64,000 nt of DNA from Amphirosellinia nigrospora. Lineage: Eukaryota; Ascomycota; Sordariomycetes; Xylariales; Xylariaceae. The notes below the pieces were generated by a model, which worked only from the letters and a program-made list of their open reading frames with translations, was not told the DNA's origin and did no database searches. The stretch spans positions 3,092,001-3,156,000 of the forward strand of contig SCHM01000001.1 in NCBI GenBank assembly GCA_004123355.1. Reading direction: 5' to 3'. This document shows positions 4,879 to 58,265 of the stretch, piece by piece. Positions within the stretch are counted from its first letter, which is position 1, and each line of letters opens with the position of its first letter. Made by a program: the position numbers and the translations under genes.

Positions 4879-6891
4879 TCAGACACTTTCTTCTTTCGTT
4901 GCAGGTTCTGCTTCAGTGTCGATGGCACTTTTCTGCTGCATCCTCTCCTTTCGTCTGTGAGCCCTAGCTGCTCTACGCTCAATTCTTTCTTGGTCCTCCC
5001 GAAGGTTGCGAATAGCTGGGCTCCTGGCGCGAATTTTGTCACCGTACCTAATGCAGGTTCAACGTTAGTTATCGCCATATGGAGCATGATCAGTCGGAGG
5101 TTGACAAGCTTATAGACGTCATCTCGGACAATAAGACAGTCCTAATCTCCAAAACTTGCCAAAACAAGAAGAAAATAGGGTTGAGAACTTACCGCCAGAA
5201 CACAAATGGGATGGGAATCAATGCTACTTCAAGCAGACCAAGGAAGGTACCAGCCCACGGCGGTGTAAGGGTTGCATATAGCTTTGGGCCGGCGAGCGGA
5301 AGAAGTCCACCTAGTAAACTACGTGTCACGGCATTGCCGGCGAGAGCCGAGGCAGCGTAGATGCCATAAGCACCCGCGAGGTAGTTTGATCCGTAAATGA
5401 AGCTCAAGGCATTCCCAGTTCCAAAGGGAATTCCGAACGCGATGGGAACAGCCCAGTGTGTTGGGGCAGGGACGTCCAAGCGAAGATCAGCTGGCCTATG
5501 GGCGTTAGGATTGCGCCAATACAGAGAATACGTGCCGTGGCCTCTGGAGGTACGCGACCTGTTGCTGGGTCCTTGGGGTGAGAGTTAATGATCTTACGCC
5601 AGAAAGGCTCGCCCAGAATCCCTATCGTTGTGCCGATACCAAGTCCTACGAATGACAGACCCGTGAGGCCGGGTCCCCAGCCGCGATGATCCGTGAAGAC
5701 GATGGGATATGCTACGAAGCACAAGTAGAGAATTCCGTATATAATCGAAATCCTGCAACATGTTAGTCCACGGTCTTTCACGATGCATCTAGTCTTACCA
5801 TAGGTTAAAAAACCATAGGATGGGTTCGGTCCAGAAAAGGATAAAGGGCCGAGTGAGGTTTATTTTGACGATTTCAAGCGGTGCGAAGTTCAGGTCGTAA
5901 CGAGTCCACCACCTTTCGTCGTCTGTCTCTTTGCGCAGCCGCGCTGCTTTGGCCTTTAGGATCGCTGGTGCATATGTTTCCTTCGTGAAAGCCACAGCAA
6001 TCGTAGCAACGCCCGCAAGAATGAGAATGAGCCAGTTATCCCATCGCCAGCCGAGGTATTGGTAAACAAACCCGCCAATAACAGGGCCTGTAACCGGTCC
6101 ATTCAACGGCGCAATGGACCACAATGACAAAACCAACGCTCGGTTATCCTCAGTTGAAATGTCGACAACCGTTCCGGCACTATTCGCGACCATGGCGGCG
6201 CCGAATAGAGCACTAGACAAGTAACTATTAGTAGATGTTCCATACTAGAATGGCGACCCGACATACCCGAAGAACCGGACAACGAGGATCTCGGTTAGCG
6301 AGGTCGCGAGACATGACGGGAGGATTAGAAGTGTGAATACTGTCATGCAGACAATATACACAGGCCTACGCCCGTACAACTCGCTGACCGGTGCCCAAAT
6401 GAGAGCGCCTATCCCCAAACCCAAAAGGTATGTAGTGACCAAGCGTCGCAACTGTTTGGCTTTGTACATTGAACTCCTTGATCAGGCCCGGTATAGGAAG
6501 TATATGTTGTACTGTATAGGACGACTATCCACGTCGAGTAACTGATGGCAAAGGTAATCCAGGCGCGATATAACACCGGCCATTCTCTCGGGTTGTCGTT
6601 TTCGCTGAAATCGACCTCGAACTCGGGCGGCCGTTGCACTGAACTGCCTATGCTCGTTGCTGTTTGGATTTGTATCACTTCTTGTAGGGCTGGTGATATG
6701 GCATGGTCCAAGGGTTCTATGGCAATACTGTCTTCCGATGCGCGGCCAATTGAACTGGAATCACTACTGCGACTCGAAGTCTCTCCGGCTGTGAGCGACG
6801 CCTTTCTTCTTGTGTGATCATGCGTCTCTATAGGCGTCTTTTCGCTACCCCCAACTCTGCCCGCCTTTTCCGAACCTCCTGACTCGGCCAT
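4879..6891 (-). CDS. MFS multidrug/polyamine exporter (TPO1-type)
   Basis: Plasma-membrane proton antiporter of the DHA1 (TPO1-like) branch of the major facilitator superfamily, exporting drugs or polyamines; the substrate is not predictable. Exons: 6891-6267, 6212-5799, 5752-5193, 5047-4879. The cytosolic N-terminus is Ser/Thr-rich, followed by the conserved NPREWP block just before TM1, the loop motif APVSELYGRRP, a GPVIGGF motif C-like segment, and a basic C-terminal tail starting at YGDKIRARS. The start ATG (MAESGGSEK) is the first in frame. Three frame breaks occur: near 6496 and 6440 (2 bases missing each) and near 5464 (one C missing from a C run). With these added back the spliced frame is 591 codons, the usual length for the family. 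The neighbours give no substrate clue. Confidence 0.88.
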
Positions 6892-9462
6892 TGGGACGTC
6901 AACCACTCGATACCCTCGAAAGCATCCACTAAGACCTTGGTGTACCAATGATTGCTCTGATGAGTCAGTAATAGGCCGTTGAAATCTGACTCGCTGCTAC
7001 AGGTTCTTGGGGCAAGAGTTGTGGAGAATCAGTTCCGTCGCGAAACTCTAGAGGGAAATCTGCCGAGCAGAAGCTACATCTTTTAAGAAAAAAAAGAAGG
7101 CTGCGAGTACAGGGTATCGCCCCTGTGGGTTCTGGTATTCTGATTAGTAAACTGCTCGTCGAGGACTCAGAGGTGGCCGTGAACGGCCTGGTCAACATTA
7201 CCCACCCTCTACCCGGGTAACTGTTACAGTCATACGGCGTTTCAACCATTCATGATGCTCCCCAAGGTAGCTGTCCCCGTTCGGAAGGTCGCGCCAAAGT
7301 TGATCGGACATAATGGTTCCCACAGCATGTGGAGTGGAGTGCTCGATCACAGTTACATGGCTAATCGGATATGCACCCTTTATCTGACTTCGTGAGCTAA
7401 GGCAAGGAAGGATGCGGGACTGGCGGTCTGCGTAAAGCTTGTTACCGCTGCCGATTTGACAGTTGAACTACCTATCTACGGTACTCAACATCGCGAGAGC
7501 TCCCGAGAGGGGAGACCACACGTCCAGTGCCATTTGACACCGGTTGCAATTTTCCTTCAAAACAAATACAATACTGCTGGACCGTCAAAAGGGGGCCGGA
7601 ATTTACCGGTCGTTGCAGCCCAATACAAGGGCTATTGTACTTAACGAACCAATATTGCCAAGACTATTTATTCATGGGAATCTTTTCAAAAAACCTTAGC
7701 TTCGCGCTTCGGCTTTTACAAAATACAGCGAGAACGAATGGCTTTGTTGATCAACGATCGCTGACCCTGTGTGTCAGAATGCTTTAGTTGTATGTAAATC
7801 GTATATTTCGCACTCAGTCCATGTAATGCTAAAGTGAAATATCTCGAGCCTTGTATCATATCGCTTCGCGGTTTCCTCTCCGTTGGCGCAAAGCCAGTGA
7901 TGCTGCAATCGGGCAAAGGGCAAGCTTGGCGATAAAAATTTGAGGTGGGGTTCGCATGGATAGATGGATGGATGGCAAGGGTTCTTTTACCGACGACTCC
8001 ACAACGGTTCAATCCTTCCCTCGGGAAGTGGAGGTCAATGTGAGAACTACGTAATGACCTATTATTCAGCTGAAGGAAGACCTGAAGAAGGCTCAAGGAG
8101 AGTTTATGTTTGTGATTCTCTATTCCATGACTACGAGAGATATACCCTATGTTGTCGTTAGCTGCATTGATAGTATGAAATAATAGAGTGTATATGATCG
8201 AATATGTAGGTGAGAGAATAGGAATGTTAATGTAGCATCCTAAACCCTGGCCCGCTTCTACAACTTAGTCTTGAATGTGGCCCAGCAGAACGGATAAGAC
8301 ATGCTTACCCGTGCTGCATGTCTTGGGTGCGCAGGCATGATGCTAAATGGTACTAGGTCAAAAACCTCAGCTTTGGTATTTAAGTAGATAACCTTTATAC
8401 TTCCGAAAAGTATCGTCAACCGCTTAACGATAACACGGGGCCCCCAGGACGCGTTTGATGCAAGTCCAAGTAGATAAGTTAGGTTCCCCATGCCTCTAGC
8501 ACGCCATTTCTGATATGGAGTTAATGTTTGCCATTCTCCGATCCGCCAGTTACTATCTTTTTAACTCGCCCTTAGTGTGCTCCTAGTCGGCAACTAGCAA
8601 CAATCAGGTGGTGACTTTGGCCACACTATAGAAGAACATACCACTAACTAGAGCAAAATGCCAAGCACCTAACACCTGCTAGCTAGTGATATGAAGGTAT
8701 ATGTGTCTTGTCAGTTCCAACTATTATCGAGGGTTTAACCGGACGAGAGGATTTCTTCGGCGTTTACCCTCAAATCTCCGTACAAAGCACATAGGGGATT
8801 ATGTGATCATTCTCACCATAATCCTTCGGTTCGCAAGATCTTACCGCATCTTCTAAAGGCGTGCCGCTACTATTGTACCCCGTAATTTCTTTGATCGGGT
8901 TGTTATACTCGAGTCGGGCTTACTATAACTTGTAAATTTTATGTCCCCGTCAGCGGCAAAACGCTGCGATCTTAGCCATGTGTGTGGCGTTGGGTTGAAT
9001 AGGATAATGAAAACGGTATGCCTCCTCAAGTTCCTTCTTTATAAAGTTTCTCTCTTCGGTATCTAAATCTATTTAAAATTAAAAATCTCACAAGGCGCCA
9101 TATCTACTAAACTCTAGATCTGTGAAAGTGATATGATAACTAAAAACCGCGGAGGGCATCAAATGACTCGAGGAGTTGAATGTGGAATGATATATAACGA
9201 ACAGTACTCCAATAACTATTGACCTGGTCATACAAGCTTTCTCCTTCTCAACTCAGCTAATTTCTCACACCCACGATGTCTAAGTATTATTAATTTATAC
9301 AAGAGTTGCTTGCCTTAGTTGTATTACAACCCAGTTTTCATAACACCAAACCGCAATTTTTATATAGCCTTGAACCACTGAGATTCTATCTGATGATGAA
9401 CCCGGCCTGTATTCTAACATGTGCACAAGAGCTGCCAATTGGAGCAAGATGAAGACAAACAA
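6892..9462. other. Gene-free stretch
   Basis: This contains the upstream region of the MFS exporter and the 3' flank of the S41 peptidase. I see no recognisable protein on either strand. A short GATG/GATA microsatellite (atagatggatggatgg) lies near 7960, and 9040-9400 is AT-rich. No RNA gene was recognised. Confidence 0.5.
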
Positions 9463-12402
9463 TCAATAGCCGGGTGCAGGTCCCAAGTACTGCTTATTCT
9501 GAGCCGGACAAGGTGGCGTACCGACGACGCAAGCCCCATCAGTAATGCGTTGGGAGCCGAGCATCTTACCCGTAAAGGAGGTCGGTCGGCACTTGCCCCG
9601 GCGAGAGAGATCGAAGCACGTTTCGTCGATATCATTACACACCGACACGCAGACGTGCCTCAACGCCGCCGTCTGGCACGGCCTCTGTTGCACGCACGTC
9701 AGGCTGCGGTCTCCGCAGCCCTGGTGGGATTGCACAACTTTGGCTTGGTAGTGGCGTAGTTGGTTCGTGAACTCGCGCCACTAACATCGAGAAGCTCGTC
9801 TGGCTGTATTAGATTGGCGGGGATCGCGGCACTGTTGGAGGCGCCGGCGCTGAGGTCCAACGCCGACGTCTTGTTGGTACTACTACCTCCCGGGCCTGCC
9901 GAAACCGAATCAACATGGCCGGTAGATCCCGGTACGCATAGGCTGGCGTTGGTCCATATGGCCGCGGCGGCGTGTTCCCATAAGTTAGTGTAGTTATATA
10001 CGGTCTGCGGGGTGTAGTATATTCTGCAGTCGGCTGGGAGATAGGCGAACTGCAATGGCGTGGTCTCCCCGCGGCGGATCTGATCGCGCAAGTTGACGCT
10101 CGCATCGAGGATGAAGACGTCGTTCGCTTCAGTGCGGTTCGGTAGAAAGGCAGCATCGGGCGACTTCTGTGATTGTAAGACTAGCTGGACGAAGTTTATG
10201 TTCTCGTCTAGGACGTCAATATCGTATTCGCGCGCGCCTCGACTGCCTGATGGCGCTTGCATGGGGCCGTCTTTGGGTTGACCGCCAACAGCGACGGTAC
10301 GTACGCCCGCTTCGTGATGCATCAGCTCCATGAATAGAGCACATGAAGAGTCGCAGATACCATCGGAGAGCTAGGGAGAGGGAGAGAAAAAAGGTGTCAG
10401 AAAACTCAGGTTCTTATATTCAGGCTTAGGACATTTATCACACTTACGATGATAACATCGCTGGCCGCGAACGGTGGGGATACTTTAGCTACTGGCGAAG
10501 GAACTGTGAAGTTGGCGCTTTCATCGGCTGATTCGTAATCGAACAGGGCATTGGACGTGTTATATCGTTGCTGATTTAAAAGCTTGAGTCAGTACCTTAT
10601 TCTACAGCGATGACACATGATTTACTGACTATATTCGTGAAGTTATCGCCGTTATAGCTATTAGGGCCGTAAAATTCTCTCCAGGAATGAAAGTATTGAC
10701 CTGTTCTAGGGTCGATACGATCTGTAACCACCCACTCACTGGCAGCCAACGCGCCATAGTAAGGGTCATTCATCGCCAGATTATCCCAGAAGGTTGTATC
10801 CGTATTTCCCATGATGTCGGCAGCGTGGTGAGCCCGCATGCGTGACCCGGCAAAGGGTTGGACGTTGGGAAAAAAGCGTTGGAAGGAGTCAATGGCCAAA
10901 AGTGGCTGTCCGCCGACATTCTGTTGAACATCTATGACGACTTTCGTCATACCCGCCTCGTGGCCTGTTGAATGAATTCCTGGACGGTCCTCTGGAAACT
11001 GTTTATCGCGTCGCCATATTCGTCGAAACTTGGGATGCTTAACACAGCGATGGAGGACGATCGGAGGAAGTACCCTAGCGCATATTAATATTGTGATGGG
11101 CTTCAATTCAAGGAAGCGAAATGCCATATAACTGCTTTTGCTTCTCCATATGTATTTACCTGATAGATATCCGCCCCCAATTGTGCCGAGATCTGGCTGA
11201 GCAACATCGGGTGTGCTAGGATAGGCCTGATTATCCCATCCACTTGGTGTCATTGTGGCTGCTGGCTGAGACACCGTCGTTGACGAAGATGAAATATCGG
11301 AGTTGGTAGTTGAGCTCGTATTGCTGCCACTACCGTCGCCATCGCTATCGCTCTCATCGTCGTCGCTATAGGGATCAAAGCCTGCAGGGTAGAAACCTAA
11401 AACAAAAAAGTTATAAAAGTCGCCGCCAGTCTCTAAGGGGCCTGTCGGGCCTTGACTAAGATAGATGCCTAGGTAGTCTTCTGTTTGACTAGTTCCATTC
11501 TCGAAAACCCATGTGATGGTATCTCCAGGGTAAATGTTGCCCCCCCACTGAAGACATCGTAGTACCCAAGAATATCCAGCGCGGGACTAAGCATTAGCTG
11601 GTTCCAATCTGCGTGAGGCTCCAGCGTGCCCGCGGAATTATTCGCTGCGAATTGCTCAAGATACGTCACTACATCTATGCCGTTGATGGACTGCAGAGCG
11701 CTTGGTTGGAAAGAAGTAAAGAAATTGCTGTCAAATAAGTCCTCTTCGAAAGGGTTAGTATGTATAATTCTATAGGCACAGTCGCATAAATGGCCTAAGG
11801 AGTTACTATACCTGCAAAATAAACTTTAGGTGGCGAAACTCCATCAGTAGACACAGATACGATGTCTCTCGGACTAGCAAAGGAGAAGGCCGCAAGAACA
11901 CCTTCGTAAAGTCTGAGGTGCCCATCGTGAGCCGCATAGACGAGTCGAATGAGATCTGTTTCAAAATTATACTGGCTGCCATAAAGACCTTCGTCGATGT
12001 TTTGTTGGAGACGACCTAGGCCTTCTATCAAGTCTACACTATTTTGCTGGTAGCTTGGGGGTGGATTCTTGAGGTAGGCCAGAGTGCTTTGGAACTGTAG
12101 CGTGTCATTGTAGTAGGAGACGAAGCGAGTGGCGACGGCAGCGTTGAAAGGGACGCTGGTCATGCACTCGTAGACCAGGCTGGCGCTAAAGATGAAGTCT
12201 AATCGCGGAAGTAAGTTAGATCTAAGTATCGAGGCAATCAGCTCACATTAGAAAAGGGAGACCTACTTCCGAGTTCACGATTTCTCCACAAGCCGTAGAT
12301 TGCGCCCCGGATGCTGTCGATGTTGATGTGGCCGTCGTTGACTGGGCTGCAGTATGACCTACTATATACCATCCGATAATGGTCAGCAAACGAGGCCAAC
12401 AT
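9463..12402 (-). CDS. Secreted S41-family peptidase (UstP-like)
   Basis: Fungal extracellular serine peptidase of clan S41, the group that includes UstP of the ustiloxin cluster. A hydrophobic signal segment (RLLTIIGWYIVGHTAAQ) is followed by a Thr/Ser linker, then ACGEIVNSE, a helical region with FVSYYNDTLQFQSTLAYL, and SINGIDVVTYLEQF. A Ser/Asp-rich insert precedes the protease core. The likely nucleophile lies in SDGICDSSCALF (about 10330-10365), after VVIDVQQNVGGQP. The Cys-rich tail includes LTCVQQRPCQ and VSVCNDIDETC. At least four introns are visible, for example GTCAGT..CAG after NGDNFTNI. Frame breaks near 9717, 10957, 11533 and 12399 look like single lost bases in short runs, or two T at the start. 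The start is uncertain, and the first exon junction does not keep phase. No UstY/DUF3328 gene or repeat precursor peptide lies nearby, so a RiPP role is not supported. Confidence 0.8.
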
Positions 12403-13194
12403 GTTTTCAATGAATGTAAGTGTAAGCTCGTGAAGTCACGCGTGAAAGACCGAAAGCAAGATCAACTTTACAATAGTAGCGAGCGACTAACATACATTTT
12501 GTATGCTACATATTGAGCTTGAAATTTCTATCTGGGCTTCCCCTCTTAAACTAGTCGATTGGATGACTCTGATCCCCTTTTTTATTAAAACAAATCATTG
12601 TTGCACGAGTCCTGCCTGGAAGCCCTGTTGAATGCCTGGCAGATTGGCAGAAACCATGTAACCGCGCACCATACGCACCATACACACCATGCTGTCAGCT
12701 CATAAGCCATTCATATCAAGTTGCATCTCGAGCTAAACTAGCTGCATTTTTTTGTTTCAAAGATTCTATTTCGAGAAACTGCCATAGCGTCGCAAGCTGA
12801 ATGCAACTTGTGGAATTACCTAATTGAGCCACCTGCGTGAGATGGCGTCGAATGAGTACCACGAATGCAGCTAGACTTGGGAATCAGTAAGTAAATGAAT
12901 TAGTAATTAATTTATTAGATAAGGGAGCCTCACCTAGGCAGACATCCTCGCCGAGCTGACATACCTAAGTCTGGCTTCTGATTGCTTGATTTTTAAATAA
13001 GGGACTGCCCTCGTTCATGCAGGCTGCGCCTCCTAGAGCCGCACATCGGGGCATTGTTTTCGATTATTCTAAAGTCGCTCACATGTTTACCATGTTCTTG
13101 CGAAACTAGTCCTGAGTGCTAGGAATGCAACTCTATCCTCATTGAGAGATCGCAACGTCCTAATTGATAATTGATAGCAGCCGAGCAACGCGAC
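12403..13194. other. Divergent intergenic region (S41 peptidase / HET)
   Basis: This AT-rich spacer separates two divergently transcribed genes and must hold both promoters. A short imperfect tandem array of caccatacg-type 9-mers lies near 12665-12690. No gene or RNA was recognised. Confidence 0.45.
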
Positions 13195-15332
13195 ATGTAC
13201 TCGATCTTACCATCCGACAGACATATTCGGCTTCTCTGGGTTTTTCCCGAGTTAGACCCGGGCCAGAAGATAAAATGTACTCTTCAAATTGCAGATTTAG
13301 ACAGTTATCCGCTGTTCGATTGTCTGTCTTACACTTGGATAAACCCTCTTGGTCTTGCGGAATCCTCAGAAGAGGTCCGAAAGGAGAAACACAACCCTCT
13401 TGGTGAGCAGATTCTATGTGATGGAGAGCCTTTTGCGGTTTCTCGGAACTTATTGCAATGTCTCCAATTCTTTCGGCAGAAAGGTCTCCATGTACGAAGC
13501 GCGGACGGCACAGCATCCTCGTCTACTCGACCTATATGGATAGACGCAATTTGTATCAATCAGGGGGGCGAAGAAAAGCCAAAGCAAATCTTAATGATGA
13601 GTAATATCTATGCTCGTGCACACCAGGTCTTGATCTGGCTGGGCCCTGGGGATGAACACAGTGGCCCAGCAACTTCCGTTATCAATCGGCTCGCGTCAAT
13701 CGCGAAGGGAGTCAGTGGTTTGCAATACTATGACCTCGACACCGAAGATCCATGCCCCAAGCTAGGGATAGAGCCGTCTATTAGTCCAAATGAGTGGTAT
13801 AGTTATGCGACGTTGCTCCAAAGGGCCTGGTTTAGCCGTGTTTGGGTGGCTCAAGAAACCTATTTTGCCAAATCCATTGTCGTTTTTAGCGGCGAGACAG
13901 AGGTCATTTGGAAGAACTTAGTGAAATCTGCGAGGGTTTTACAGGAAACCGGCCTTGCGGAGGCGCTGCAGAACATGATGAGGAGCAATATGGATTTCGA
14001 GGCTCTGATAACTGGTAACCCAGTTGACTCACCTAGCCTGGAACCAAATACACCACCATTCGAGTCATTCTCGCCCCTGAAATCCAGTCTCAATAACCAG
14101 CTTATACTCACAGTATTCGGTAGTGAGGAAAGGAGGGTGTCATTTAGCCTAGATAGATTATTGAGCTACTCCTGCTACCTAGATGCAGGGCTTCCTCTCG
14201 ATAAAGTCTTCGGGCTTATAGGGATTTGGCAGGACTCTGTCGCAGACAAGAATCTGGAAAATTTGATTCCAGTGGACTACAACAGCTCAGTGTCTGATGT
14301 CTTCATGAATGCTACATACGCGGCAATGCGTGAAATGGAGGGCCTTAATCTCCTTCGACTTGTTGGGCCAACCCTCTCTACCCAGTTCGAACTTCCATCA
14401 TGGGTGCCAGATTACACTTGCTGGCCGCACATTCATAACATAACCACCCCTAAAATCCCATCTATCATAGATGTGGGCGGGATCGGGGATACCATCTCAC
14501 GGGGCGAGTCTTGGGTGTTGCGACCCAACCTTGGAGCAGAAGCCCATTGTACTTGGCGAGCTGATGGAGGCCGAGCTTGGCATATCCCTATTCTCGAACC
14601 TCAATCGAAATGCTTAACCACCAAAGGAAATTTGTTTGAAACTGTCGCTGACGTTGGGCCATCTTACCGTCAGGTCGATTCAGGACACGAGTTGCATCTT
14701 CTTCTCAAGCATCTTGGTGAATGCCCAACATGGCCATCTCCGTATGGTATGAAGTCTTCCATGGTCTGGCTCCAGACGTTGGTCGCAGGCAAATATCGGA
14801 ATCGGCCTGCTGATCATGAAGCCATCCAGGCTTTTCACGACCTGATTGCGGTTTTTGTGAAAGAATTAGAAGAAGCGTGGCAATTTTCTGACCTCGAAGA
14901 GCTGCCCGGGGCAAGGGATATAGAAAAGCTATTTGAACATACCAAAAGCGCTATCGACGATCTCAGCGCGAGGCAATCAAACCACGGCATCATCCCTACC
15001 TGGGAAAAGGTACGGCAGTTGATCGAGATATCACTTAGGGACCTAGATGACGCGGAAAAGCGTAGGATGGATTCTGATACAGATGCTATGCGTCTGAGTT
15101 TCGATAGAGCGTACGGGGGGAGGAGGATCTTCCGAACAACAGGGAATTACTGGGGTATATCTTCTGAGTCTCTGAAAGAAGGTGACCAAGTGTGTGTACT
15201 ATCAGGCGCAGATACGCCTTATGTTCTGAGGAAAAGCGATCGGGGATGGAGGTGATAGGCGAGGCTTACGTGCACGGTATCATGCATGGAGAAGCTGCAC
15301 ATGGTTCATTCGAGGATCTAAGACTTATATAA
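13195..15332 (+). CDS. HET-domain (heterokaryon incompatibility) protein
   Basis: Cytosolic protein with an N-terminal HET domain, the signalling domain found in fungal non-self recognition and programmed cell death genes. The diagnostic blocks are in order: FDCLSYTW, ILCDGEPFAVSRNL, RPIWIDAICINQ (about residues 115-126), QILMMSNIYARAHQVLIWLG, and LLQRAWFSRVWVAQE. A large C-terminal region with no recognised repeat follows. No NACHT, STAND, ankyrin or WD40 segment is visible, so partner-type specificity is unknown. The frame is uninterrupted for over 2 kb, then closes early at 15255. One missing base in the GGAGG run at about 15253 hides the conserved ending GEAYVHGIMHGEA, which runs in the next frame to a stop at 15330-15332. 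With it restored the frame is 713 codons. There are no introns. Confidence 0.9.
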
Positions 15333-17879
15333 TACTGTCGCAAATAGAGCCGGGTGCCAAGGGCTTGGAACAGTGGTTCGTATACACAGTTATGAGGCAT
15401 ATACGTAGGTTGGCTCATCACTTCAATAGAACCAAGTGCTTCCGGCATTATACCATGCTCCAAGATATGTTAGCAACTTCATTCGCCAATATCCATGAGA
15501 TATTCCGACCTTATGTGAGCCGAAGTGCAAGACAACAGCAGGCGGCTCATCTACGACCTATTTGTCAGGACCTTCGTGTGAGTGATACCACTCATGGGCT
15601 ACTCCCAGCCATATACACAGACCCCAATGCCTTTGTCAGTACCGGTGAGGCTGTACGAGTCAATCACGACAGTGGCGATAGTACTGCCGAGGCGGTGAGT
15701 CTGACACTATCGGATACCCCTGGCAGCCCTAATGTGATGTGCTGCTCACTAAAGGGCTCATTTTATAAGGTATTTAATCATCATAAGAGTTGTGCTAACA
15801 ATGTTCTTGTTGAAGCTCAAGTAAAGGAATTACTAGGTTTCAGTACTCGTCGGACGTGATTCGGGCGGCTTAGTTGCCCCTATTGACTGCTCATTTATCA
15901 TGATACGGGGGAATAACAAACATTAGTGGGATAATATACTATCTTAGATGTCGAAACTTTACGTGGCTTTAGTACACGTAAAGGTAAGTCGACGCCGCCA
16001 AGATTATCACACGTACCGAAGAACTAAGTCCTGAATCTGCAACTCGAGAGCTACATATCATGTACACTTTCATACAAGTGTGACCCAGAATTACCCTCCT
16101 CCATTTACGTACAATTCTGAAACCGCAACCTCATGCGGGCGTCCGTTTCATAAAACAATGGAGTAAGATTGCATTAAGATATGATAATGTTCTTAGCAAT
16201 AGAATGCTTAATACCCCAATCACTCGCAGCCCTCATAAAGTACTATGTTTTGCCTAAAGTCTCCTTTCGTAATGATGAGCTATAGAATAACGGCCACATC
16301 TGACTACATCTTGTATTTCATCCCACGCATTTTATTATGTAAAAGATTATGCATTATCAAGAAGAAGGAAACTATACTGGATTGTGCTCAGTTAATTGAA
16401 TGGTATTTATAGGATGCTACTCGGGCTCTGTGAGACTTGTCCCTTTGAACCAACAGGGGGGCTACCGATTAACAGAAAGCTAATATAAGTTTCCTGTTAA
16501 CATAATAGCTTCTAAAGGCTGGAGAAAATCGTGACTAACAATCCCGCTTCAAACAACATTAGTTCTCTGTTGAGGGATTCACTATTTTGCCACTATCGAA
16601 AACTGTCGGGGTTGAACTGCTCTGGTGACGAGAATGTCGCCTGGGGCGCTTAGGGAGGCATGCCATAGATATCTTCATCGCTAGACTGCTTGGGGCGGAA
16701 CGCATGATAGTCATGGCCAGTCCTTCCTCTTGGTACTCAAAAGGCCAACTCACAAACCCAACCTAGTACCCATTCGCGTACTGAGTGCATCTATGAACAA
16801 ATACACTCCGTTTTCTAGGCGCCTGTGCCCACAGTAAGCTATTTGGGAATCAGATCCGTTTGTTATGTCTTAGTACGGGATATACCGAGCCCTATGCGCA
16901 ATGCTGTCTTGGCTTGCCGTAAAAACTGGATTCGGACGAGATTCAAAATAAAGTGGAAATATAGCTAGTAGTCTTGCAAAGCTGAAAGGAACAAGCTGAT
17001 ATGTTTGTGCCATTCAAAGGGCTCATGACATTGACCTAGCAATCAAATGGTGTCCCGGAGATGTGTTTACTGCGTAGATGGCTGAAAGGATAAGTCTAGG
17101 CCTCCTTAAGTAGTAACTATTGACGAAAAGGCGCCTTCTACCATCCCACTGGGACTCGAGGAGCTGACCGGAGGCGATTTTATGATTGGGAAATTCGGTA
17201 GGGATATGCGCGTGGGGTGGATTCGTAATTTTTGGCACCGATGTCGTGATACTTGGCATCACACCATGGTCTCGCCCGCATGTGCATACTAACATGAATC
17301 ATTATGTGGTGTATAGATATGTCCCAGCGAGAATAGTATTCTTCAGCCGCAATCCCACCAGCTCGGAAACGGGCTAGGTAGCTGTGATGGTAGGACACGA
17401 TACTGCATCATTCCCGCGGAAATAGATGCAATGCACGTGGCTAGACCCAGAGAGTCGGGAGGGCCAGAACCCTGAGGCGGTCCTGAAGGGTTGTTCCCGT
17501 TTCGTTGATTGTATGCAGCCATCCCAGCATCATGCTTCTGGGCAGCCAGCTTTAACTTCTGGTTGCACGCTTGGCCCTCTCTTGTCGTATCTAGTGCTAT
17601 GGCAGCAGCTCTGGCACACTAATGTGCATCATTTGGCCCCTCGGGCACCATACTATCGGGGAGGTCTTTCCGTGTTGACGAGATGTATAATTAAGACGAT
17701 ATCCGCGTTGAAATTCTCAGTGACATTGGTCGATAGTGTATGAACTCAAGCAAGAACATCGACAACTGAATAATTAATGAGGTATTAGAACTTGGAACAC
17801 CAACTTCCAGGCCCAGAAAGTCCCTCATCCCACCTGATTGCTGCTTCATTGGGAAGACTCTTGATATCCGGATCGAGTG
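15333..17879. other. Gene-free stretch
   Basis: No gene is supported. A 164-codon open frame starts just after the HET gene (15365-15859) but begins on a non-ATG codon and matches no family I know. Near 16560-16750 the + strand reads a protein-like segment (KTVGVELLW, then IDIFIARLLGAERMIVMA) broken by a stop, which could be a relic exon. I cannot name it. The rest is AT-rich and unremarkable. Confidence 0.45.
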
Positions 17880-37906: not shown

Positions 37907-37916
37907 CTTTATATAC
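37907..37916 (-). promoter_or_regulatory. Candidate TATA box of the 72-aa gene
   Basis: On the minus strand the sequence reads tggtatataaagagg, about 135 bp upstream of the start codon. It contains TATATAAA and is followed by ordinary leader sequence. It is a strong consensus match without transcript support. Confidence 0.45.
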
Positions 37917-44716: not shown

Positions 44717-45457
44717 AACGGTGTGATCGAGATACCTCGAGCCAGTCGAGGCGGCAGCTGATCGGCAGTATGTTGTGGAAAAGAGCGACCGCCGGCTAAT
44801 TAGAAGGAGGAGGGAGAGTACAAGGCCCGGCCATGGCTACCACGGACCGTGAACATATGAAATGACCGACGAAAGGTGGAGGGAGGGAATATAGAGGAAA
44901 CGGATCAAATTATGATGAAAGAGCGTAATATGTGAAATATCTATGTCATGCCCAGATTAGCCCATTCAATTTGAATCCACCCACGGGTTATGTACGCTAT
45001 TCCTCTGCCGAAAGTCGTCGAGTTATACCGTAAAAAGGCTTTTTTTGAGCTGATTCGTGGCGTGAGGCAAGACCCTACATATAGTGCGTGGGGCTACCGC
45101 CACATCCCCTCAGCCACTCCTCACCAAACAATGCTGCACGTCCGCGTCATACCTGGTATTCACTTAACTTATTATCTAGATCCTTTATAATTTGACCGAC
45201 ATACCTGCTAAACAGTTATTTTTAACCCCACCAGCTCCCCTATTGCCGTCACTGTTGTTGCAGTTTTCTTTTCTAGTGAATGAATATTGTCGGCATGGGG
45301 TTGTGGTGAGGCAACATGAAATACCTCCGACCCGGCGATGGCAGCATTCTTCTGCCGCTTTATGAGAAGACTGTAAATGAAACCCGTTAGTCCAGCGAAC
45401 GGTTAAGCAAAAATTGCCCGGAGTTGAATACAAGGACGGGAGAAGAAGGGTGGCTCA
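44717..45457. other. Intergenic region
   Basis: Upstream region of the Mtf1-like gene and 3' flank of the surface protein gene. No supported gene was found. Confidence 0.5.
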
Positions 45458-47269
45458 CTATAAACCCCCAGCAACAACGGCCAGGAACGGGACGCCGAGG
45501 CCAACAGAGAGGCCAATGATAAGTGGTGTGTTTGCTTTGGTTTTGCCTGTGGGTGATTCGTCATTTGGTTTGCCACTCTGCCCTCCTGAATTGGGCGTTG
45601 TCGCAGTCGAGGACGGCGGCGGGACATACGAGGTGAGACTCCCAGTCGTCGCAGCAACGCTTTTGAGGTTCTTCGAAAACGGAATCGTCTCTGGAATACT
45701 GTTCTGCATCGTCGCTGGGACCGTAGCCTCAGAACCCGAGGGGACCGTGACCACCAACGTCTTCGTACTTATAACCTTGGTCGTGCTCTGCAGGGAGGCA
45801 GGACAGTCGCTAAGGCCTGCCGATACACACACCAAGCCTGTGAATGTGGCCTCGTCTGTTAGGGTCGTCGTCGTCGCATTCTCATCCGCTCTCGCAGCAA
45901 CTACTGACGTAGGTATGTTAATGGCCGTCGTAGAGGCGGTCTTCGTCACAGACTCGGTACACTCGTCGGCCAAGGTTGTATAGAAGATAGGGATCTTCGT
46001 CGAGGGTCCGGGCCCCAAGTCTGTTGTCCGATGGCGAGCGTTGCGCCGGCAGCGGCTCCTAGCGCCAACTGGTACGCTTGCTGGACGCGCAATTGGCAGT
46101 TGCTGTCGTCGCCCTCCGGTAGAGCCGTAATGTTCGTCGTGAATTCAGCTAAATCTGCGTAGACTAGTACCTCGGTACCCGCGCTAACTTGTGGGAATGA
46201 ATCAAAGGTATCAAATTCTTGTGAGATGCCTGCGTGCATCCCTACTCGCAGCTTTGCCGTCAGGACGCCGTTTGCGCTCTGAACGGTGACAGGCAGGAAC
46301 TCGAAGGATCCCCCATTACTGAGTCAATGTCAGCTTATTGGGCTTAAGAAGTGGGACAACGTTATACGAATTCATTGCCACTTACAAGGTTACGCTTGAA
46401 ACATATTGGCTAAAAAGTGAAAGATCAAGCGTCATGCCATCATCGACCTTAATGTGCAAGCCACTGCTAATATCAATATCGGCGTCAGCCCCTAAAATGA
46501 GGTCGATAGAGACGATAACCCCCACAAACGTTTCGCTGTCGATAGAGAGGCCAACAGGGGTCTTGCTTGAGTAAAGATTAAGCGTATACGCCGTGCCCGC
46601 TGAGATGACTGTATCTAGTAGCATATAAAGTTCCAAGTCGTCGAATTGAAAATGCAGGTGACACTCGGGAATGTCTGGTACGTCAACATTGAAACTGATA
46701 TTCAAGGGTGGGAAGTCAATGTCGCTAAGGTCGAAATCCTCGGTCAGGTTCTTTATTAACCCCTCGGTTTCATTTTCCAGGTAGGTGAAAGCAGTTTCTG
46801 TGACATTCTCAATCTCCTGTCCTACATCTTCGGTGAAGTTTGTGATGGCTTGGCCGAGATTAAAATCGCTGGCGAATCCAAGTTCAGCTGTCACAAGCCC
46901 CTTTATATAGCACGTCACACACGTCACATCAACCCCGGCGGATATTGACGTATTGCCATAGGCTACTTGGCCTTCACTATCTATGAAGTTAGACATAAAC
47001 TTGATTCATTTTCATAGGGTATCATGGATAATTTCTCACAGGCTGAAAAGCGTGGCACCAATCCAACTCCTCTCTATGTTAGTGGCATTTTTTAGTGAAC
47101 TATCGCGTCCAGATAGCCTATTACGTTGTATCGTCCTCGAGACAGCACGCAAAGTGTTCGATGGAGGTGGAGTTCTTGGAACACCGAGTTGATGGGGCCT
47201 GCCAATCCCACTGACATCTGATACTAGTACCAGACCTAAAAATGATGAATATATAAAATTAATTTTCAT
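45458..47269 (-). CDS. Secreted, anchored cell-surface protein, function unknown
   Basis: Exons: about 47269-47040, 46999-46386, 46318-45458. It starts with a signal peptide (MKINFIYSSFLGLVLVSDVS). A beta-rich ectodomain follows with many N-glycosylation sites and a Cys pair (VTCVTCYIKG), then CHLHFQFDDLELYMLLDT and SIDLILGADADIDISSG. After the third exon's ADECTESV block, a Ser/Thr-rich stalk ends in a single hydrophobic segment (TPLIIGLSVGLGVPFLAVVA) at the extreme C-terminus, consistent with a GPI signal or a TM anchor with almost no tail. This resembles a Pezizomycotina family known only as hypothetical. One G is missing near 46012. Exon 1 to exon 2 needs one more base to keep phase, so that junction is uncertain. 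Confidence 0.65.
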
Positions 47270-50200
47270 GATTACCAAATGAGCAGGATGGAAAAATTTC
47301 ACGTTGAAAGGCCTATAAGCATAGAGAATGGCTAGAGAAACAACAGGAAAACCCTATGGAGTCCAAAGCCCAGGGTACTAGTATTTATCGAAAGCACATC
47401 TTAAGCTAGCTCATGAAACAATAGGAACACCTTACGGGCTCCGCGATTCTAAATGGAGGTTGTGCCGGCGCGGCGCGATGCATGTAGCTGATCGAGGCTG
47501 CGCAATCATAGCTTGGTTCTGTTTCACGCCTTATTCTCGTCGTGCCAGAATGAGGCAGGAGCTGAAGTCGGAAATGGGTCTGCCCCAAATCCTCCGGATA
47601 TCAAGAAGTGGCCGCAGGGGTTTGTATGCAGGTTTGAGACAATGTTGGCAACACTTGTTTCTGCGTGCAGTGCATTTGTGATCCTTCGCCCCCAAATGTG
47701 AGATTCGAGCCCACGGTTCTGCATGCGCAGATACCAACTAGCACTAGCGATGGATTAGCCACACGAATAATAAGACAAACATAAAGCTTGCTTTTCCCTT
47801 CTATTCTATCGTTCTTAGATGGATGGATCAACTCCGCGATATTGATTTGCGTTGCTTTTCCAAATAGTCTAATGAGTGCACCGTGGAGAGCTATGAACAA
47901 CATGATCATTAACGGCACATACATACAACCAACAATACAAAAAATCGGTTTACAAATTAGGACGAGACCGCTATAACTATAACATTCGGACACGATTGCC
48001 ACGATGTAAACTAGCAAATTTCTCCTCCATGGCCAATAGACAAAAGAAATCTCGATTCCTTTTAATAGGATTGTGATACCACCCACTCGCGAGTAGAAAC
48101 TGTGTCAGCTGGTCAATTTCGGGCGTTTCCCATTGCGCCCTGTCTACATATCTGCTTACATAGGTAAGCCCTCGTAGAAATACGGAATCGAGCTTTTATT
48201 GATTATTATATTACTGCTTTGGATAACGCGCTAGATTTCTTAGGTAAGTATGTTCTGATCTTACTGGGAGTCTGGTGATGTTCACACAGCCCTTCAAAAG
48301 ATGAGGAGGAAGCGCAATAATCTTAAGTCTAGTCTCAGATACCGGAGATTGGGGTTACATCCCGAGGCTGGACTCCGACGTTTGCACAACCCTACGATCC
48401 GGCTGAGCAGTCGGGTCGCGGGATAGCTCGGTATACCCAGCCACAAGCTTATCTATCATTAGAATGGGGGTGACGTGTCATTGACTTTAACGACAACTAG
48501 TTTCAGAATATTCGACACAAGATCTATTAAAGATACAGTGGCTGTTGCTTGACGCGGCAGATCCCGTCGATAGTGTTTGCTGTGCTCCACCAGCCCGTAT
48601 CTTAGTATACACGGCTAAGTCAAGGGCTGGACATCGTTTCTCCCGAACCAACTCCCTAGCTAAAAGCTAGCCAGTTATTCTCTTCCACGACACTTCTTAT
48701 ATGCGTTCATATCCCTCTTACCCCAACATGATGACTTGCTCGTCGATCCTGATCCGCGACTGATATCAGTTTAGTCGTACACATGCCTTTGCTAGCGAGG
48801 CTGAACGAAGACGGGTGAAACTCCCGATTGTATTTGAGGACATGGCCGGCGCTTTATGGCTTGAAACTTGGCTTGCAGTCAGAACGCTACATTTTAACCG
48901 CCAGGGGGTTTTCCTAGGCGAGCCTGCCGTATGTCGAGTGTCTCAAATTAGAGGTATACTTCTTCAAGCCGCGATCTACGAGGAGCTACGCGTCAATTGC
49001 TTTTCTATTTTGGTGGATAGCTTCGCTTACGAAATCCCCAATAGGCTGCCTATCTGACCTTACATGCTGCCTTCGTAACACTGGCAGTCTATAAATTTTG
49101 ACACTTTATCGATATTATATATATTTGGAGGGACTAATCGGTGAGAACTTTTTAGAGTAGGCAGTGTATTAGCGTAACAAACAAGTCATTGACGTGACAC
49201 CACATAGTGCGAGTCTCAGTTCGTCTAATTTGCACACCTCCGCCACTTATAGATCCAGTGCCAAGTGGCAAAGTTCATATGCTATAACTAGCCTGACAAA
49301 AAGTGAGGAGCCATCCCTTGTCGAGTTGTTTGGCTTTGCTTTTCCTGCTCTTGGGCTAAACAAGAAACTTTACACTACTTTGGGGGTAGGCCATATGGTA
49401 GAAACAGAAACAAACGATACGACACAGCCGAAAATTCATTTAAACGGAATGGTTCATAATATAATTAATTAAATCCTCAGTTAGAAGTGTCTACGTAGAA
49501 CATACTTACCGTAGCACAAGTAATGGCTTTTTAACTAACGTTTGCTCGTTTGATGAAATAAGGTCGGAATAAGTATTGTTTGATTCGATTTAGGGAGAGA
49601 ATTTATGATTCAGACCTGCCCAGCATGGACGCTAGAGGACTAACTGCTTTTTTTCTATGAGGCTATCATTGACTCCCTGCTCGAGGTAGAGAATAGAGAC
49701 CTGTTGCACGAATGTGACTGGGGCTTATGATCAAATGCTTGAAACATTTTAGTTACATTCCGTCAATATTTTCATTGGCCTTTCCGTAATTAACCTCGTT
49801 TTTGCTCTTGTTTTATAACCAGATCTTTAAGCCGCCTCCTTCGATATGATCTCCGATTGTAGACCGCTTAAGAAAGACCTGTACTACATGAGACAATTAT
49901 AACCAATGTCCCTTTCCTCTCCAGCTATATGTCTCAAGCCTCGAGAGAATGTCAGGGATCGTTTAGGTTTTCTAGGTGGCTTGAAGCGTTGGGGCTCATA
50001 TGTAATTCTGTGGCTTGCTCATATCACCTACATCTGACTATCTATGCTTGTGTATCTGTGCTTAATTATGCTTCGTGGCAGAGGCCAACAATGTTTAGCT
50101 TTAAGCGCCATGATGTGTATGCCCATTCTCCCTAGGGACTTTCCCTTGTATGACACGAAAACACTGGAGAACGTTAAGATTTGGGTGCACATGATGTGGA

Positions 50201-51619
50201 GATTCTACCCGAGCATTAAGCGAGAGTATTGTCAGACTTAAACGCCTATAGTGCCTTTACACATGGCAAGTCGATAAAAGGGAGCCGATGGTTTAGATTG
50301 TGAGAGAGATGACGGAGTTTTCTTGGATACGGCCGTACAGTCATTCGTTTCAGCAGTGTCTTAAGGTTAGGTTGCGGCTCAAATCACTGGATGACGGAGG
50401 CTCAATAATGATAGGCTAATCTTAGTAGTCTGTTTCTTAAACGACATCACTGAATGAAGCCTCGCCGCCATGATGGCGCATTGTGTTGCAAGAAAAGGCA
50501 AGACATTAAGCAATCAAACGACTTGGTGCATCGTAATTGGTGATTCGAACGACTGACCATAGCTATAGCGAGGAGCGATAATTACATTGCAATATATGCA
50601 CAAAGAAACAAGCTAAATTCTTTGAGAGTCTCGGTATACTGTAAACAAACTTAATATCACGAGCTGCCTGGGCGGGGACATGTCGCGGATCTACCGAAGG
50701 TAAAGTGAAAGTAAGTCTGCTACTTGTGTTGAAATGTTAGGAATTTGTGGCCTAATAATAAGCGGCGCATCAGTAGATCAAAGTCCGCGGAGCGGTTCAT
50801 AACAATCCTCGGGAATAACTATCCGACATACTGTAAAGTATGGTAACCAATTGATTTCGCCAGCGACTGGCAGCAATACTAAATACTGCAGCCGTCTCAC
50901 GAGAGAACGGACACGGAGCCACTGATCCGTCATCTAGATAAGCGAATGCGAATCTGATCAGCATTGCGACGGCTCGGAGGGGCCGGGTCATCCTGGGGCT
51001 GAACCGGTGGCAAGATTTTATTGCCGCGGACCGTTGAAAATAATGCACGAGAAACGCTAGAGATATTCCCGAGGCCCTCTGTGATTAATGATCATTATTA
51101 TTGGTCTGCAATTTAGCTTGTTCCGCAAAGGGTGTCCTTTCTTGGGCCGAAATGTATCCACATAATGGGAAATTAATTCTTATTTTAGCTGAACGAATGT
51201 TTGCACGCACGCAAGGCACAACTCTGTGAGGTTTGCACGTGGATAGTGTTCGTTATTCGTCACAAGCTACGCGCCGCCACAATGTGCAATGCTCGGATAG
51301 ACATCACAGATCGCAGGTCGGAAGCGGGCAAATAATCAGGGCAGGCTAGGGACGGAGACTTCACCACGCCGTATCTTTATTGACCATCGAGGGGGTCAGA
51401 TTATAGTCTCAACCAGACCGCGTCTGAACTATAAATTAACATCGTGCCCTTTGCTTCAATTTTTTGGCATTAAACTTGAAGAGTATACATACTCGCATGA
51501 TAGAATATTATCCTTCCTCTGCTTACCCTGCCATTATACTTGAATAGTATATATGCTCGTGCGATAGAAGAAGATCATTAGACTTACTTTACCTCGGCTC
51601 GAAATCTTTAGAACGAATC
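47270..51619. other. Longest gene-free stretch
   Basis: Over 4 kb without a recognisable gene on either strand, AT-rich in 48900-50300. Open frames are short and show no family pattern. The right end is the promoter of the FAD monooxygenase and holds a 64-bp tandem duplication (separate entry). Confidence 0.5.
51468..51595. repeat. Tandem duplication of 64 bp in a promoter
   Basis: Units 51468-51531 and 51532-51595 align head to tail. Shared parts are catta(a/t)acttgaa(g/t)agtat and at(a/g)ctcg, then (c/t)g(a/c)(t/g)(g/c)atagaa. The first unit contains the perfect inverted repeat GAGTAT-AC-ATACTC; the second has a decayed form. The pair ends 25 bp before the FAD monooxygenase start codon, so it lies in the leader or core promoter. 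Confidence 0.7.
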
Positions 51620-53014
51620 ATGCCTTTTCGCGCAATTGTGCTTGGCGCAGGGCCCGCCGGACTATTCACCGCACACTCTCTGGCCGCAGCAGGCATCGAC
51701 TTCATAGTCCTCGAAAGACAGCCAGAGATTGTGAGATTTCGCGGAGCACTGATCTTGCTATGGCCGCCCTTCGTGCGGTTGATGGACCAGTTGGGTTTGT
51801 ACGAACCGGCCATGCGATATTCCACGCGCATAACTACCAAGACACTTTACCAATAGCGGTGAGCCCTATGTAGCGACCGCGCGTTCGAGGCTGTTGCAGA
51901 TGAGTAAGTTAGCCCTCTAAGATCAGCGCGAAAGGCATCCACTAAAGAAATACATGGTAGACTTGGCTATCCCACACTAGGACTCTCTCGTGGGAATCTT
52001 CTTCGTGTCCTTTATGAAAATTTGCCTGGGCGCGACACCAAAGTCAGAGTAAATGCAAACGCAGTGAGAATTGAAACGACCCAGGATGGGGTGCGCGTAC
52101 ATCTCGCGGACGGAAGCATAGTCGATGGGTCAATAGTAATTGCCGCGGATGGCGTGCGCAGCTCGGCCAGAGAACTCGTCCAGCGTCTTGGAAACGATTC
52201 GGCCTCATCAAGTGACCCGAAGCCTAAGTCACCGATGGTTCCCTCCTACATGTCGTTATTTGGCTCTACCCGAAGTATCCGGGACGATATCGCCCTAGGC
52301 GATTTTGCCGAGTCGCATGGGCCCGGAATAGCCTCCCAATCAGTCCGACTAGACAATACCATGTACTTCACCGTTATTAAACGGCTGCCGGAGCCTGGCG
52401 CCGAGAACAAAAGATTCACGAAAGAAGAGATGGGTAAATTTGCCGAGGAGATGTCCGATGTAACGATATTCCCGGGTATAAAGCTGAAGGAAATCTGGCC
52501 GACCCGTGAAGAGGCCAACGCCGTGTTGATTCACCAGGAGGAGGGCGTGGCGGAGAAATGGCACCATGGCCGAGTTGTACTCGTTGGCGACGCATGCCAT
52601 AAAATGACATCTGTGAACGGCCAAGGCGCGTTATCGGCCGTGCTCTCTGCGGCTGTCTTGGTCAACAGCCTGCGAGCGACTCTGGGCAAGAACCCGCAAC
52701 CCAGCACGGACGACCTCGAAGCGACCTTCGCTAAGTACGAAGCGTCGCGCAAGGCCGCCGCGAGTGGTGCGGTGGGCGTTGGTGTCTGGTTGACGCGCTA
52801 CATCACGTGGACAGCGGAAGGGGACGAGGCTCAGGATCGAAATCAAAGTCGTGCGCATCAAACCCATCCGGGCAACATGGCCAAGGACGTCATCAGCAGA
52901 TTTGTGCCGGGCTTCAGTAAGAGCCCGATATTGGACTTTATACCGTTTGAAAGTCGGCGTGGCAATACTCCATGGGAGGTGGAAAGCAAGTTGCCGGGCC
53001 GCCCGCAGCTTTAG
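51620..53014 (+). CDS. FAD-dependent monooxygenase
   Basis: Flavoprotein hydroxylase of the salicylate/kynurenine-type class A group. Exons 51620-51903 and 51981-53014, 440 codons after correction. The N-terminal Rossmann motif is IVLGAGPAGLFTAHSL with the acidic end of strand two in FIVLERQPE. The DG motif is IAADGVRSSARELVQRL, and the GD motif is VVLVGDACHKMTSVNGQGAL, which binds the FAD pyrophosphate and ribityl. All three FAD contacts are present, unlike the broken homologue at 30453-31579. The C-terminus is short, with no TM anchor. One break near 51849 fits loss of one AC from ACAC. Such enzymes usually act in secondary metabolism or aromatic breakdown; no cluster partner is visible, so the substrate is unknown. 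Confidence 0.87.
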
Positions 53015-56213: not shown

Positions 56214-56866
56214 ATATTCAGTGGTTGATTTGGCTGCACCGCTTGACCTAGCCTTTTGTTGGAATCATGTCGAGTCACCCTTTGCTGACAGAGATTATAC
56301 GCGTATAGACCTCACGATGTCCGTTTAGTAGAATACTGATACCTTTTGATGATTACCTACCTCGGTGCTGAATTTTCAATGCTCTCCCATTCCCAAGTTC
56401 AGTTCTAAGCCGTCTACTAGATACCTTATTAAATAGTCTTAACCTGACAAGTACCTACTAAGTAGGTAGGTACAGATGGTACGAATTTGAATCCCAGTGC
56501 ACACTAGGTAGGTTAGATACCTATACCTATGTACCTAGAGCTCCATGATGGTGGGGGCGGGGCCGATAGGTACCTACTAAGTTAATTAGAGATATCCCTA
56601 CTAGGTTACCTAATTTCACGATTTGCCCCGCCAAGAATATGCATGTTACTAGATATATAGAGATAGTGAATATAGGTACATGCATCGGGGTTCGGCAGTG
56701 CCAGCTGGAACGCTCTTGCACCCCAGTATTTGTCACCTGGCCCATGTATCAATTGATGATATCGTCGCATCTGGAAATCTCAAAGTCGTCAAGCCTTTTG
56801 CAGGAAGACGGCAATCAATCTAAGTCACCACACTGGCTATGATAATAAGGGAGTTTGGCGTCCGCC
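56214..56866. other. Intergenic region
   Basis: A short spacer between two genes on the same strand. It is filled with tacctactaagtaggtaggtac-type words at 56450-56600. No gene was recognised. Confidence 0.5.
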
Positions 56867-58265
56867 ATGGTACGTGGATTCTACGCACATTGGTACACTA
56901 GAGCAATACTAACACTTTACCAATTGACAGCCAGACGGGCATTGGCTCGGCCTGCACACCAGGCTTATGTACGAACGCTCTTAACACAGTCCACGGCGAC
57001 ACCAACAACGACAATACAATCGACTGTGGCGCAAAATGCCCTCCAGAACCCAATCACCCAACCTAAACCGGGCCCTCCTTCCATCTTCGTCGCCAATGCA
57101 AAGTCAGCCCGCCGGCGGAAGCCTGACGAGGTCGACATGACGGCCGAGCTGTACCACCGAGGACAGCAGTTGAAGAGCCAGATAGGGAACCTGGGCACAA
57201 CCGTCGAGAACCGCTACCGCCCCGGCGACGTCTTCCTCGATCCGCCCGGCCCGAGGATGTCACGCTCGAGCTCCTAATGGCCTCCCAGGCGCACATGGGC
57301 CACCATACCTCGTTATGGAACCCGGCCAACGCGCGCTACATTTACGGCATCCGCCAGGGCATTCACATCATCTCTCTCGAGCAGACTGCTGCCCACCTGC
57401 GTCGGGCGGCGCGCGTTGTCGAGGAGGTTGCCTACCGCGGCGGCCTGATTCTGTTCGTGGGCACGCGACCCGGCCACACGCAAATTGTGACCCAGGCCGC
57501 CCAGCTCGCTCGCGCCTGTCACCTGTTCACCAAATGGATACCCGGATCTATCACCAATAGCGATGTCATCCTCAACACTATGCAGATACACATGCTCGAC
57601 GAGAACGACCAGCCTCTTGAGGGCTTTGACCGTCACCTCACTGAACGACGGCCGCTGGTCCCCGACCTTGTCGTTTGCCTCAATCCCCTGGAGAACTACC
57701 CGCTCCTCCATGAGTGCGCGCTTGCCAATGTGCCTACCATTGGTGTCGTTGATACAAATACCGAGCCCACGTGGGTTACGTACACAATCCCCGCTAACGA
57801 CGATAGGTGTGTACTCTCTCCCACTGCTCTGATTCTCATATCCTCGGCGAAATTTAAAGCTAATCTCTATACTATATAGTCTACGGTGTCTAGCTGTGAT
57901 CGGTAGCGTGCTAGGTCGCGCTGGCGAGACAGGACACAAGCGTCGTCTCGATGACGCAAAGTTAGGCATTGTAGAGTGGCAGACGCCTCTAGACGTACAG
58001 AATTTTAGTAAGCAATTGTCGAAATCCAAGCCATTCCCAGGAGCACAGAGATTTTCATTCGAGGTTATCATTATCTCATGAGTTTTTATCCCTATCTGAA
58101 ACAGTCACAAATTATTTAAAATTACGATTGCTAACTCTAAATGTCACAGTGGTCGTTAGCCGCAGGCTTGCTGAAGAGGCTGAAAAAGCTAAGCAAGTAG
58201 CAAACAACGAACAAGGCTCCGACGGTGCTAATTCTACCAACCTCAACTCTTTAACGGTTGGATAG
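56867..58265 (+). CDS. MRP4: Mitochondrial small-subunit ribosomal protein uS2m
   Basis: Nuclear-encoded component of the mitochondrial ribosome small subunit (bacterial S2 family). Exons: 56867-57806, 57880-58007, 58150-58265. The N-terminus (MVRGFYAHWYTRAILTLY) is basic and suits a mitochondrial presequence; an intron beginning at the GTACGT after the first ATG was considered but would break phase. S2 signatures: MASQAHMGHHTSLWNPAN (the HLGH-type helix), YIYGIRQGIHIISLEQT, GGLILFVGTRPGHTQIV, TKWIPGSITN, DLVVCLNPLENYPLLHE, and PTIGVVDTNTEPTWVTYTIP. The tail RRLAEEAEKAKQVANNE is a fungal extension. One G is missing near 57252 (read as PGPRMSR where PGPEDVTLELLMAS is expected). With it the frame is 395 codons. 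The gene is essential in yeast, so a real break here is unlikely. Confidence 0.93.

What the first reader, a model, noticed from the sequence alone, without database searches (positions are those of the whole stretch)
4879..58265. About thirty homopolymer or dinucleotide contractions break conserved genes
Seen: frame breaks in 16 genes near 5464, 6440, 6496, 9717, 10957, 11533, 12399, 15253, 18365, 18382, 19262, 19311, 19370, 19903, 23363, 26996, 27046, 28650, 33944, 34373, 36487, 37723, 41023, 43170, 44303, 46012, 51849, 54101, 54648, 54767, 55951 and 57252. Nearly all fit loss of one base from a run (mostly C or G) or of one 2-bp unit. After correction, 14 genes have spliced lengths divisible by three and normal family sizes. 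Essential genes (uS2m, Mtf1-like) are hit. Inference: uncorrected sequencing or assembly indels.
Basis: partly seen in the sequence, partly recalled or inferred. Interest (0 to 1): 0.7.

Follow-up and report, generated by a model that had tools for sequence, protein, structure and literature searches.

The report
Fungal genome assembly with indel errors
Genes in this stretch of a mould genome look broken because the assembled sequence appears to have lost or gained single letters and letter pairs, an error seen across the assembly and not a property of the living fungus.

Summary
A homology-free frame tracker made 21 calls in the window; 16 of 32 listed positions lie within 65 nt of a call (random mean 2.6). 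Family matches and three-frame reading support five more; 11 of 32 stay undecided, one of them better read as an intron. The window is not special: 0.62 calls per kb of called coding here, 0.69 in 13 other 10-kb samples (p = 0.80). In four Pfam families 22 frame changes with no room for an intron fall in 39.8 kb, on six contigs, in chaperone genes among others. Noncoding repeats carry similar marks: three copies of a palindromic element, one in the window, differ inside it by no substitution but by two 2-bp losses. That losses are the rule, and that they lie in runs, is only partly shown: shift directions are mixed and run enrichment at independently placed breaks is weak. No reads were available and the platform is unknown. 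It is an artefact.

The parts
5194..7467 (-). MFS-like gene, frame changes near 5464-5479 and 6440-6496
   Evidence: tracker calls 5479 and 6476; PF07690 match to piece 5404-5859 below the curated cut-off
9469..12436 (-). Gene with a weak CPAF-related PDZ match, frame changes near 9702-9717 and 11533-11546; 10957 and 12399 undecided
   Evidence: PF23658 on 11795-12247, below cut-off
13177..15857 (+). HET-domain gene, frame change near 15245-15253
   Evidence: PF06985 E 1.8e-23; tracker
18337..20632 (+). Sulfate permease gene; two breaks at 18365-18382, a cluster at 19262-19370, one at 19896-19903; introns called at 19043-19114 and 19963-20069
   Evidence: PF00916, PDB 9nf7 aligned from window 18379, three-frame reading, tracker
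21763..24254 (-). C2H2 zinc-finger gene, frame change near 23328-23363
   Evidence: PF00096; tracker
27008..27895 (+). HMG-box open frame; the listed breaks 26996 and 27046 lie at its 5' end and are undecided
   Evidence: PF00505; single-strand tracker segments end at 26998 and start at 27044
33611..34667 (+). Arginase-like gene, frame change near 33926-33944; a GGDHS stretch (motif name recalled) lies in the next frame; 34373 undecided
   Evidence: PDB 5ynl E 1e-8; PF00491 below cut-off; tracker
38284..38479 (.). Palindromic (MITE-like) noncoding repeat; this copy is one 2-bp unit shorter than the C6 copy, with no substitution
39268..41590 (-). Glycosyltransferase family 90 gene, frame change near 41023-41050
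   Evidence: PF05686 on piece 39265-40374; tracker
43082..44832 (-). rRNA-dimethylase-like (Mtf1-like) gene, frame change near 44299-44303; 43170 undecided
   Evidence: PF00398 E 8.2e-5, just below the curated cut-off; tracker
45469..47350 (-). Gene with a weak Mid2-like match, frame change near 46012-46029
   Evidence: PF04478, below cut-off; tracker
51576..53011 (+). FAD-binding monooxygenase-like gene; listed break 51849 falls inside a called intron 51799-51913
   Evidence: PF01494
54226..56170 (+). CBS and PB1 domain gene; between 54648-54661 and 54767-54775 the frame leaves and returns, a further change near 55951-56016; intron called at 55207-55259
   Evidence: PF00571 and PF00564 (the two CBS-bearing pieces are in one frame, the stretch between them reads on in another); tracker
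56849..58076 (+). Mitochondrial ribosomal protein uS2m gene, frame change at 57251-57252
   Evidence: PF00318 E 5.2e-58; mitoribosome chain 6yw5_BB E 1.5e-92, alignment starting at window 57247, at the break; tracker

Best explanation
The frame breaks are consensus errors of the genome assembly: short runs and short tandem units came out with the wrong length, with some events outside runs, as happens in long-read assemblies without accurate-read polishing. They are spread over the assembly at roughly one per 1.5 to 2 kb of coding sequence, and the genes are intact in the organism. Shown: frame changes in several conserved genes on six contigs, the same density in and outside the window, and short indels in noncoding repeats. 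Inferred: that reads or consensus caused them, the long-read origin, and the intact state of the genes in the cell.
For: Tracker: 21 calls per 33.9 kb coding in the window, 45 per 65.0 kb elsewhere, against 11 per 49.3 kb on ORFs taken as clean. The HSP70 gene on C8 covers its Pfam model in three overlapping pieces and the one on C7 in four pieces less than 45 nt apart, in changing frames. 22 such changes in 14 of 32 gene clusters of four families. Three HSP70 paralogues on C1, C5 and C8 break at the same conserved place, model positions 457-461, and all three have a C or G run of 5-6 there. Palindromic repeat copies W, L039 and L040 show 0 substitutions within the element (one mismatch in a flank) and two 2-bp losses. 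In an older repeat 15 of 19 bases deleted against the majority are G or C, 13 of these inside a run of two or more (contexts). Published nanopore-only fungal assemblies show such damage: roughly one-fifth of the tested genes had a wrong sequence after long-read polishing, and all 305 test genes could be identified after short-read polishing (PMC7500977, passages; similar statements in PMC9453082 and PMC8011154, passages).
Against: Shift directions are mixed: 15 and 7 for Pfam pairs, 25 and 20 for tracker calls outside the window, and the tracker's false calls on clean ORFs lean to -1 (9 of 11). Run enrichment at 15 Pfam-placed breaks is weak. In the older repeat substitutions exceed indels and several deletions are shared by copies and may be inherited. 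The tracker was trained on the same sequence that it was run on, its clean control included. No clean fungal genome was run as a control for the Pfam fragment count. No reads were available; no ribosomal or mitochondrial control could be examined (searches found none; Rfam searches of the genome unanswered).
Confidence: 0.96

Rival explanations
1. Real inactivating mutations: the genes decayed into pseudogenes, for example in a dispensable region or a mutator strain lacking mismatch repair.
For: Breaks hit many genes; sampled parts of C9-C11 are AT-rich or repeat-bearing.
Against: Density is the same on the four long contigs (34 calls in 48.2 kb coding) as on the short ones (11 in 16.8 kb; sums). 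Conserved genes such as uS2m, CCT/TCP-1 and HSP70 are hit while their protein sequence is otherwise conserved, e.g. an HSP70 piece against Hsc70 at E 2.9e-164. A viable cell could hardly lose these (established knowledge).
Confidence: 0.02
2. The organism decodes the broken frames, by programmed ribosomal frameshifting as in Euplotes or by insertional RNA editing.
For: The breaks are genome-wide and leave protein sequence conserved on both sides.
Against: The contexts of 15 placed breaks share no motif by eye; both shift directions occur; short indels also appear in noncoding repeats, where decoding does not act; 18 of 32 clusters of the same families show no such change.
Confidence: 0.01
3. 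Some of the listed breaks are misread introns or misjudged gene ends, beside others that are true assembly errors.
For: 51849 lies in a called intron; 11 of 32 positions gained no support here.
Against: 21 of 32 positions have independent support, so this explains a minority at most.
Confidence: 0.3

Closest known systems
Indel errors of long-read-only assemblies (for example the Drechmeria coniospora ONT assemblies, PMC7500977)
   Same: Short indels breaking conserved genes across the assembly, mostly in homopolymers by the paper's account; similarity searches still find the pieces (passages seen).
   Different: Platform and polishing history here are unknown; in that paper polishing introduced more insertions than deletions, whereas here -1 shifts are somewhat more frequent, not significantly so.
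Nanopore systematic errors (Homopolish, PMC8011154)
   Same: Indels in homopolymers that shift reading frames and survive read-based polishing (passages seen).
   Different: Here 2-bp losses in short tandem units are also seen and run enrichment at placed breaks is weak.

Membership tests
Uncorrected assembly indels | Spread over the whole assembly, not confined to one region | tested here: met
   0.62/kb in the window, 0.69/kb in 13 other loci, p = 0.80; Pfam-placed breaks on six contigs
Uncorrected assembly indels | Hits conserved genes that a viable cell needs | tested here: met
   HSP70 and TCP-1 families; uS2m in the window; need of these genes is established knowledge
Uncorrected assembly indels | Also present in noncoding DNA, with indels exceeding substitutions between the most similar copies | tested here: met
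   Closest trio of 6 of 18 copies: no substitution within the element, two 2-bp indels; one more pair with 1 substitution and 1 indel; a fourth copy differs from the trio by 8 substitutions and 1-2 indels. In an older repeat substitutions exceed indels
Uncorrected assembly indels | Located in homopolymers or short tandem units | tested here: inconclusive
Uncorrected assembly indels | Absent from accurate reads of the same strain | not testable with these tools
   no reads held
Programmed frameshifting (Euplotes-like) | A shared shift signal at the sites and one shift direction | tested here: not met
   15 -1 and 7 +1/-2; no shared motif seen by eye in 15 contexts
Pseudogenisation | Confined to dispensable genes, with relaxed protein constraint | tested here: not met
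   conserved genes hit, protein sequence conserved

The most novel reading that the evidence does not exclude
A filamentous fungus whose nuclear genes really carry pervasive frame breaks that are restored at the RNA or ribosome level. Nothing here excludes it outright without reads, but short indels in noncoding repeats make it very unlikely.
Probability: 0.01. Interest if true: 0.95.

Novelty: not a real feature. Interest (0 to 1): 0.08.

Why it matters
It is a quality warning: gene models, pseudogene counts, protein searches and selection tests from this assembly will be wrong for many genes (14 of 32 clusters of four conserved families show a frame change). Comparing near-identical repeat copies gives a protein-free way to see such errors from an assembly alone.

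Tried and rejected
Single-strand frame tracking over-called on antisense frames and was replaced by a joint two-strand model. The clean control used stop-to-stop ORFs of the same genome, which were also the training set and whose ends may hold foreign frames, so its 11 calls in 49.3 kb are a rough background; simulated single-base losses were found in 14 of 19, 27 of 41 and 46 of 87 cases, with 15, 13 and 9 false calls. Mononucleotide run lengths in the window stay close to a geometric law, with no run of 10 or more, so the spectrum shows no gross truncation. Untranslated RNA controls led nowhere: Rfam found nothing in the window at gathering scores, Rfam searches of the genome did not complete, an ITS1-primer pattern with one mismatch had no match, ARAGORN found no tRNA in the window and one in 23 other loci, which was not examined further. 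COX1 was not found, so coverage contrast could not be used. Of 39 neighbouring Pfam fragment pairs 17 fell in the 'intron or long gap' class and were not counted. That count misses breaks that HMMER reads across, the window's own sulfate permease among them, and a few counted pairs overlap widely (up to 284 nt) and are less sure. The PF00006 search was not in the count; by hand 1 of its 4 pairs would be added, as +1/-2.

Full report
What the window is. It is C1:3092001-3156000 of a 48.1-Mb assembly in 11 contigs, 13.8 Mb to 18 kb long. The genes (HET domain, GT90, a uS2m closest to the 6yw5 mitoribosome, which is Neurospora's by recall) and short introns fit a filamentous ascomycete; the species is not known.

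Are the frame breaks there? A phase-specific coding model was trained on 52 long open frames of the window and 12 samples. A joint two-strand tracker with introns, no homology and a frame-shift penalty called 33.9 kb of coding and 21 shifts in the window. 16 of the 32 listed positions lie within 65 nt of a call, against a mean of 2.57 and a maximum of 9 in 5000 random draws; 15 of 21 calls have a listed position nearby. The limit of 65 nt was set after seeing the distances; at 40 nt it would be 15 of 32 (distances).

Homology agrees. In the sulfate permease, three frames in turn encode successive stretches around 18365-18382 and again across 19262-19370 (family sequence partly recalled); PDB 9nf7 aligns from window 18379 on, and the Pfam model reads 19101-19568 only through two stops. 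In the arginase-like gene the piece up to the break near 33944 matches arginases and a GGDHS stretch, a motif recalled as arginase-like, follows in the next frame. In the CBS/PB1 gene the two CBS-bearing pieces are in one frame but the stretch between 54648 and 54775 reads on in another. The uS2m match starts at 57247, at the break at 57251-57252. In all, 21 of 32 positions have support and 11 do not; 51849 is better read as an intron.

Is the window special? No. The same tracker gave 45 shifts in 65.0 kb of called coding in 13 other 10-kb loci, equal to the window (p = 0.80) and above the 11 in 49.3 kb called on ORFs taken as clean (p = 0.006 for the window, 0.0004 for the rest). Three further 10-kb loci with 10-24% GC (L009, L015, L016) were left out of the count. 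In the whole genome, Pfam families HSP70, sulfate permease, TCP-1 and class I tRNA synthetase gave 71 matched fragments in 32 clusters, 39.8 kb in all. Of 39 neighbouring pairs, 22 change frame with less than 45 nt between them, hence with no room for an intron, in 14 clusters on C1, C4, C5, C6, C7 and C8; 17 were left as intron or long gap. One HSP70 gene has two such changes and another three. Three HSP70 paralogues break at the same conserved site, at runs of 5 or 6 C or G. No clean fungal genome was run as a control for this count.

What kind of change? Of the 22, 15 are -1 and 7 are +1/-2 (p = 0.13); tracker calls are 13 and 8 in the window and 25 and 20 elsewhere. The tracker's 11 calls on clean ORFs were 9 and 2, so it leans to -1 by itself. 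Around 15 of the 22 Pfam-placed breaks, those whose DNA was held, the longest run is only slightly longer than at random sites (2.93 against 2.62, p = 0.08; 3.13 against 2.87, p = 0.15).

Noncoding DNA gives the cleanest test. A palindromic element of about 190 bp at 38284-38479 has 18 places in the genome. Six were compared: the three closest, the window's among them, show no substitution within the element (one mismatch in a flank) and two 2-bp losses; two others differ from each other by one substitution and one 1-bp indel; the sixth differs from the first three by 8 substitutions and 1-2 indels. In 13 copies of a second repeat (11 fetched of the 40 places scored, plus two in L014), 19 bases are deleted against the majority: 11 G, 4 C, 3 T, 1 A, 15 of them in runs; 27 inserted bases include one 11-bp piece and 2-bp units at two places; 104 substitution cells are mostly G to A or C to T (63 of 104), as repeat-induced point mutation would give (the RIP reading is established knowledge). 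Some shared deletions may be inherited, so this repeat is weaker evidence than the first.

Explanation. Errors of the consensus explain uniform density, hits in conserved genes and indels in noncoding DNA. Published nanopore-only ascomycete assemblies behave so (PMC7500977, PMC9453082, PMC8011154: found, passages seen). The platform here is not known. Pseudogenes, programmed frameshifts and editing each fail one or more of these tests.

Noticed in passing
38284-38479: Near-perfect palindrome of about 190 bp with other copies, 69-99% identical, on eight contigs: a MITE-like element.
   Followed up: partly
L014:377-583 and 5398-5605: About 205-bp repeat with many copies, several in same-strand pairs 7.7-8.0 kb apart, starting TG and ending near CA: terminal repeats of an LTR-type element by inference, with G-to-A and C-to-T changes like RIP.
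   Followed up: partly
L009 (C5:3000001-3010000) and L016 (C11:20001-30000): Blocks with 10% and 15% GC in a genome whose gene-bearing samples are mostly 44-53% GC, perhaps a centromere or RIP-degraded repeats.
   Followed up: no
59401-62167: A stretch called as one gene with eight introns and no frame break, in contrast to its neighbours.
   Followed up: no
whole assembly: No COX1 match and no match to an ITS1 primer pattern: mitochondrial and rDNA sequence may be absent or withheld.
   Followed up: no
   Followed up: no
32353-32462: Tandem array of 2.7 copies of a 42-bp unit.
   Followed up: no
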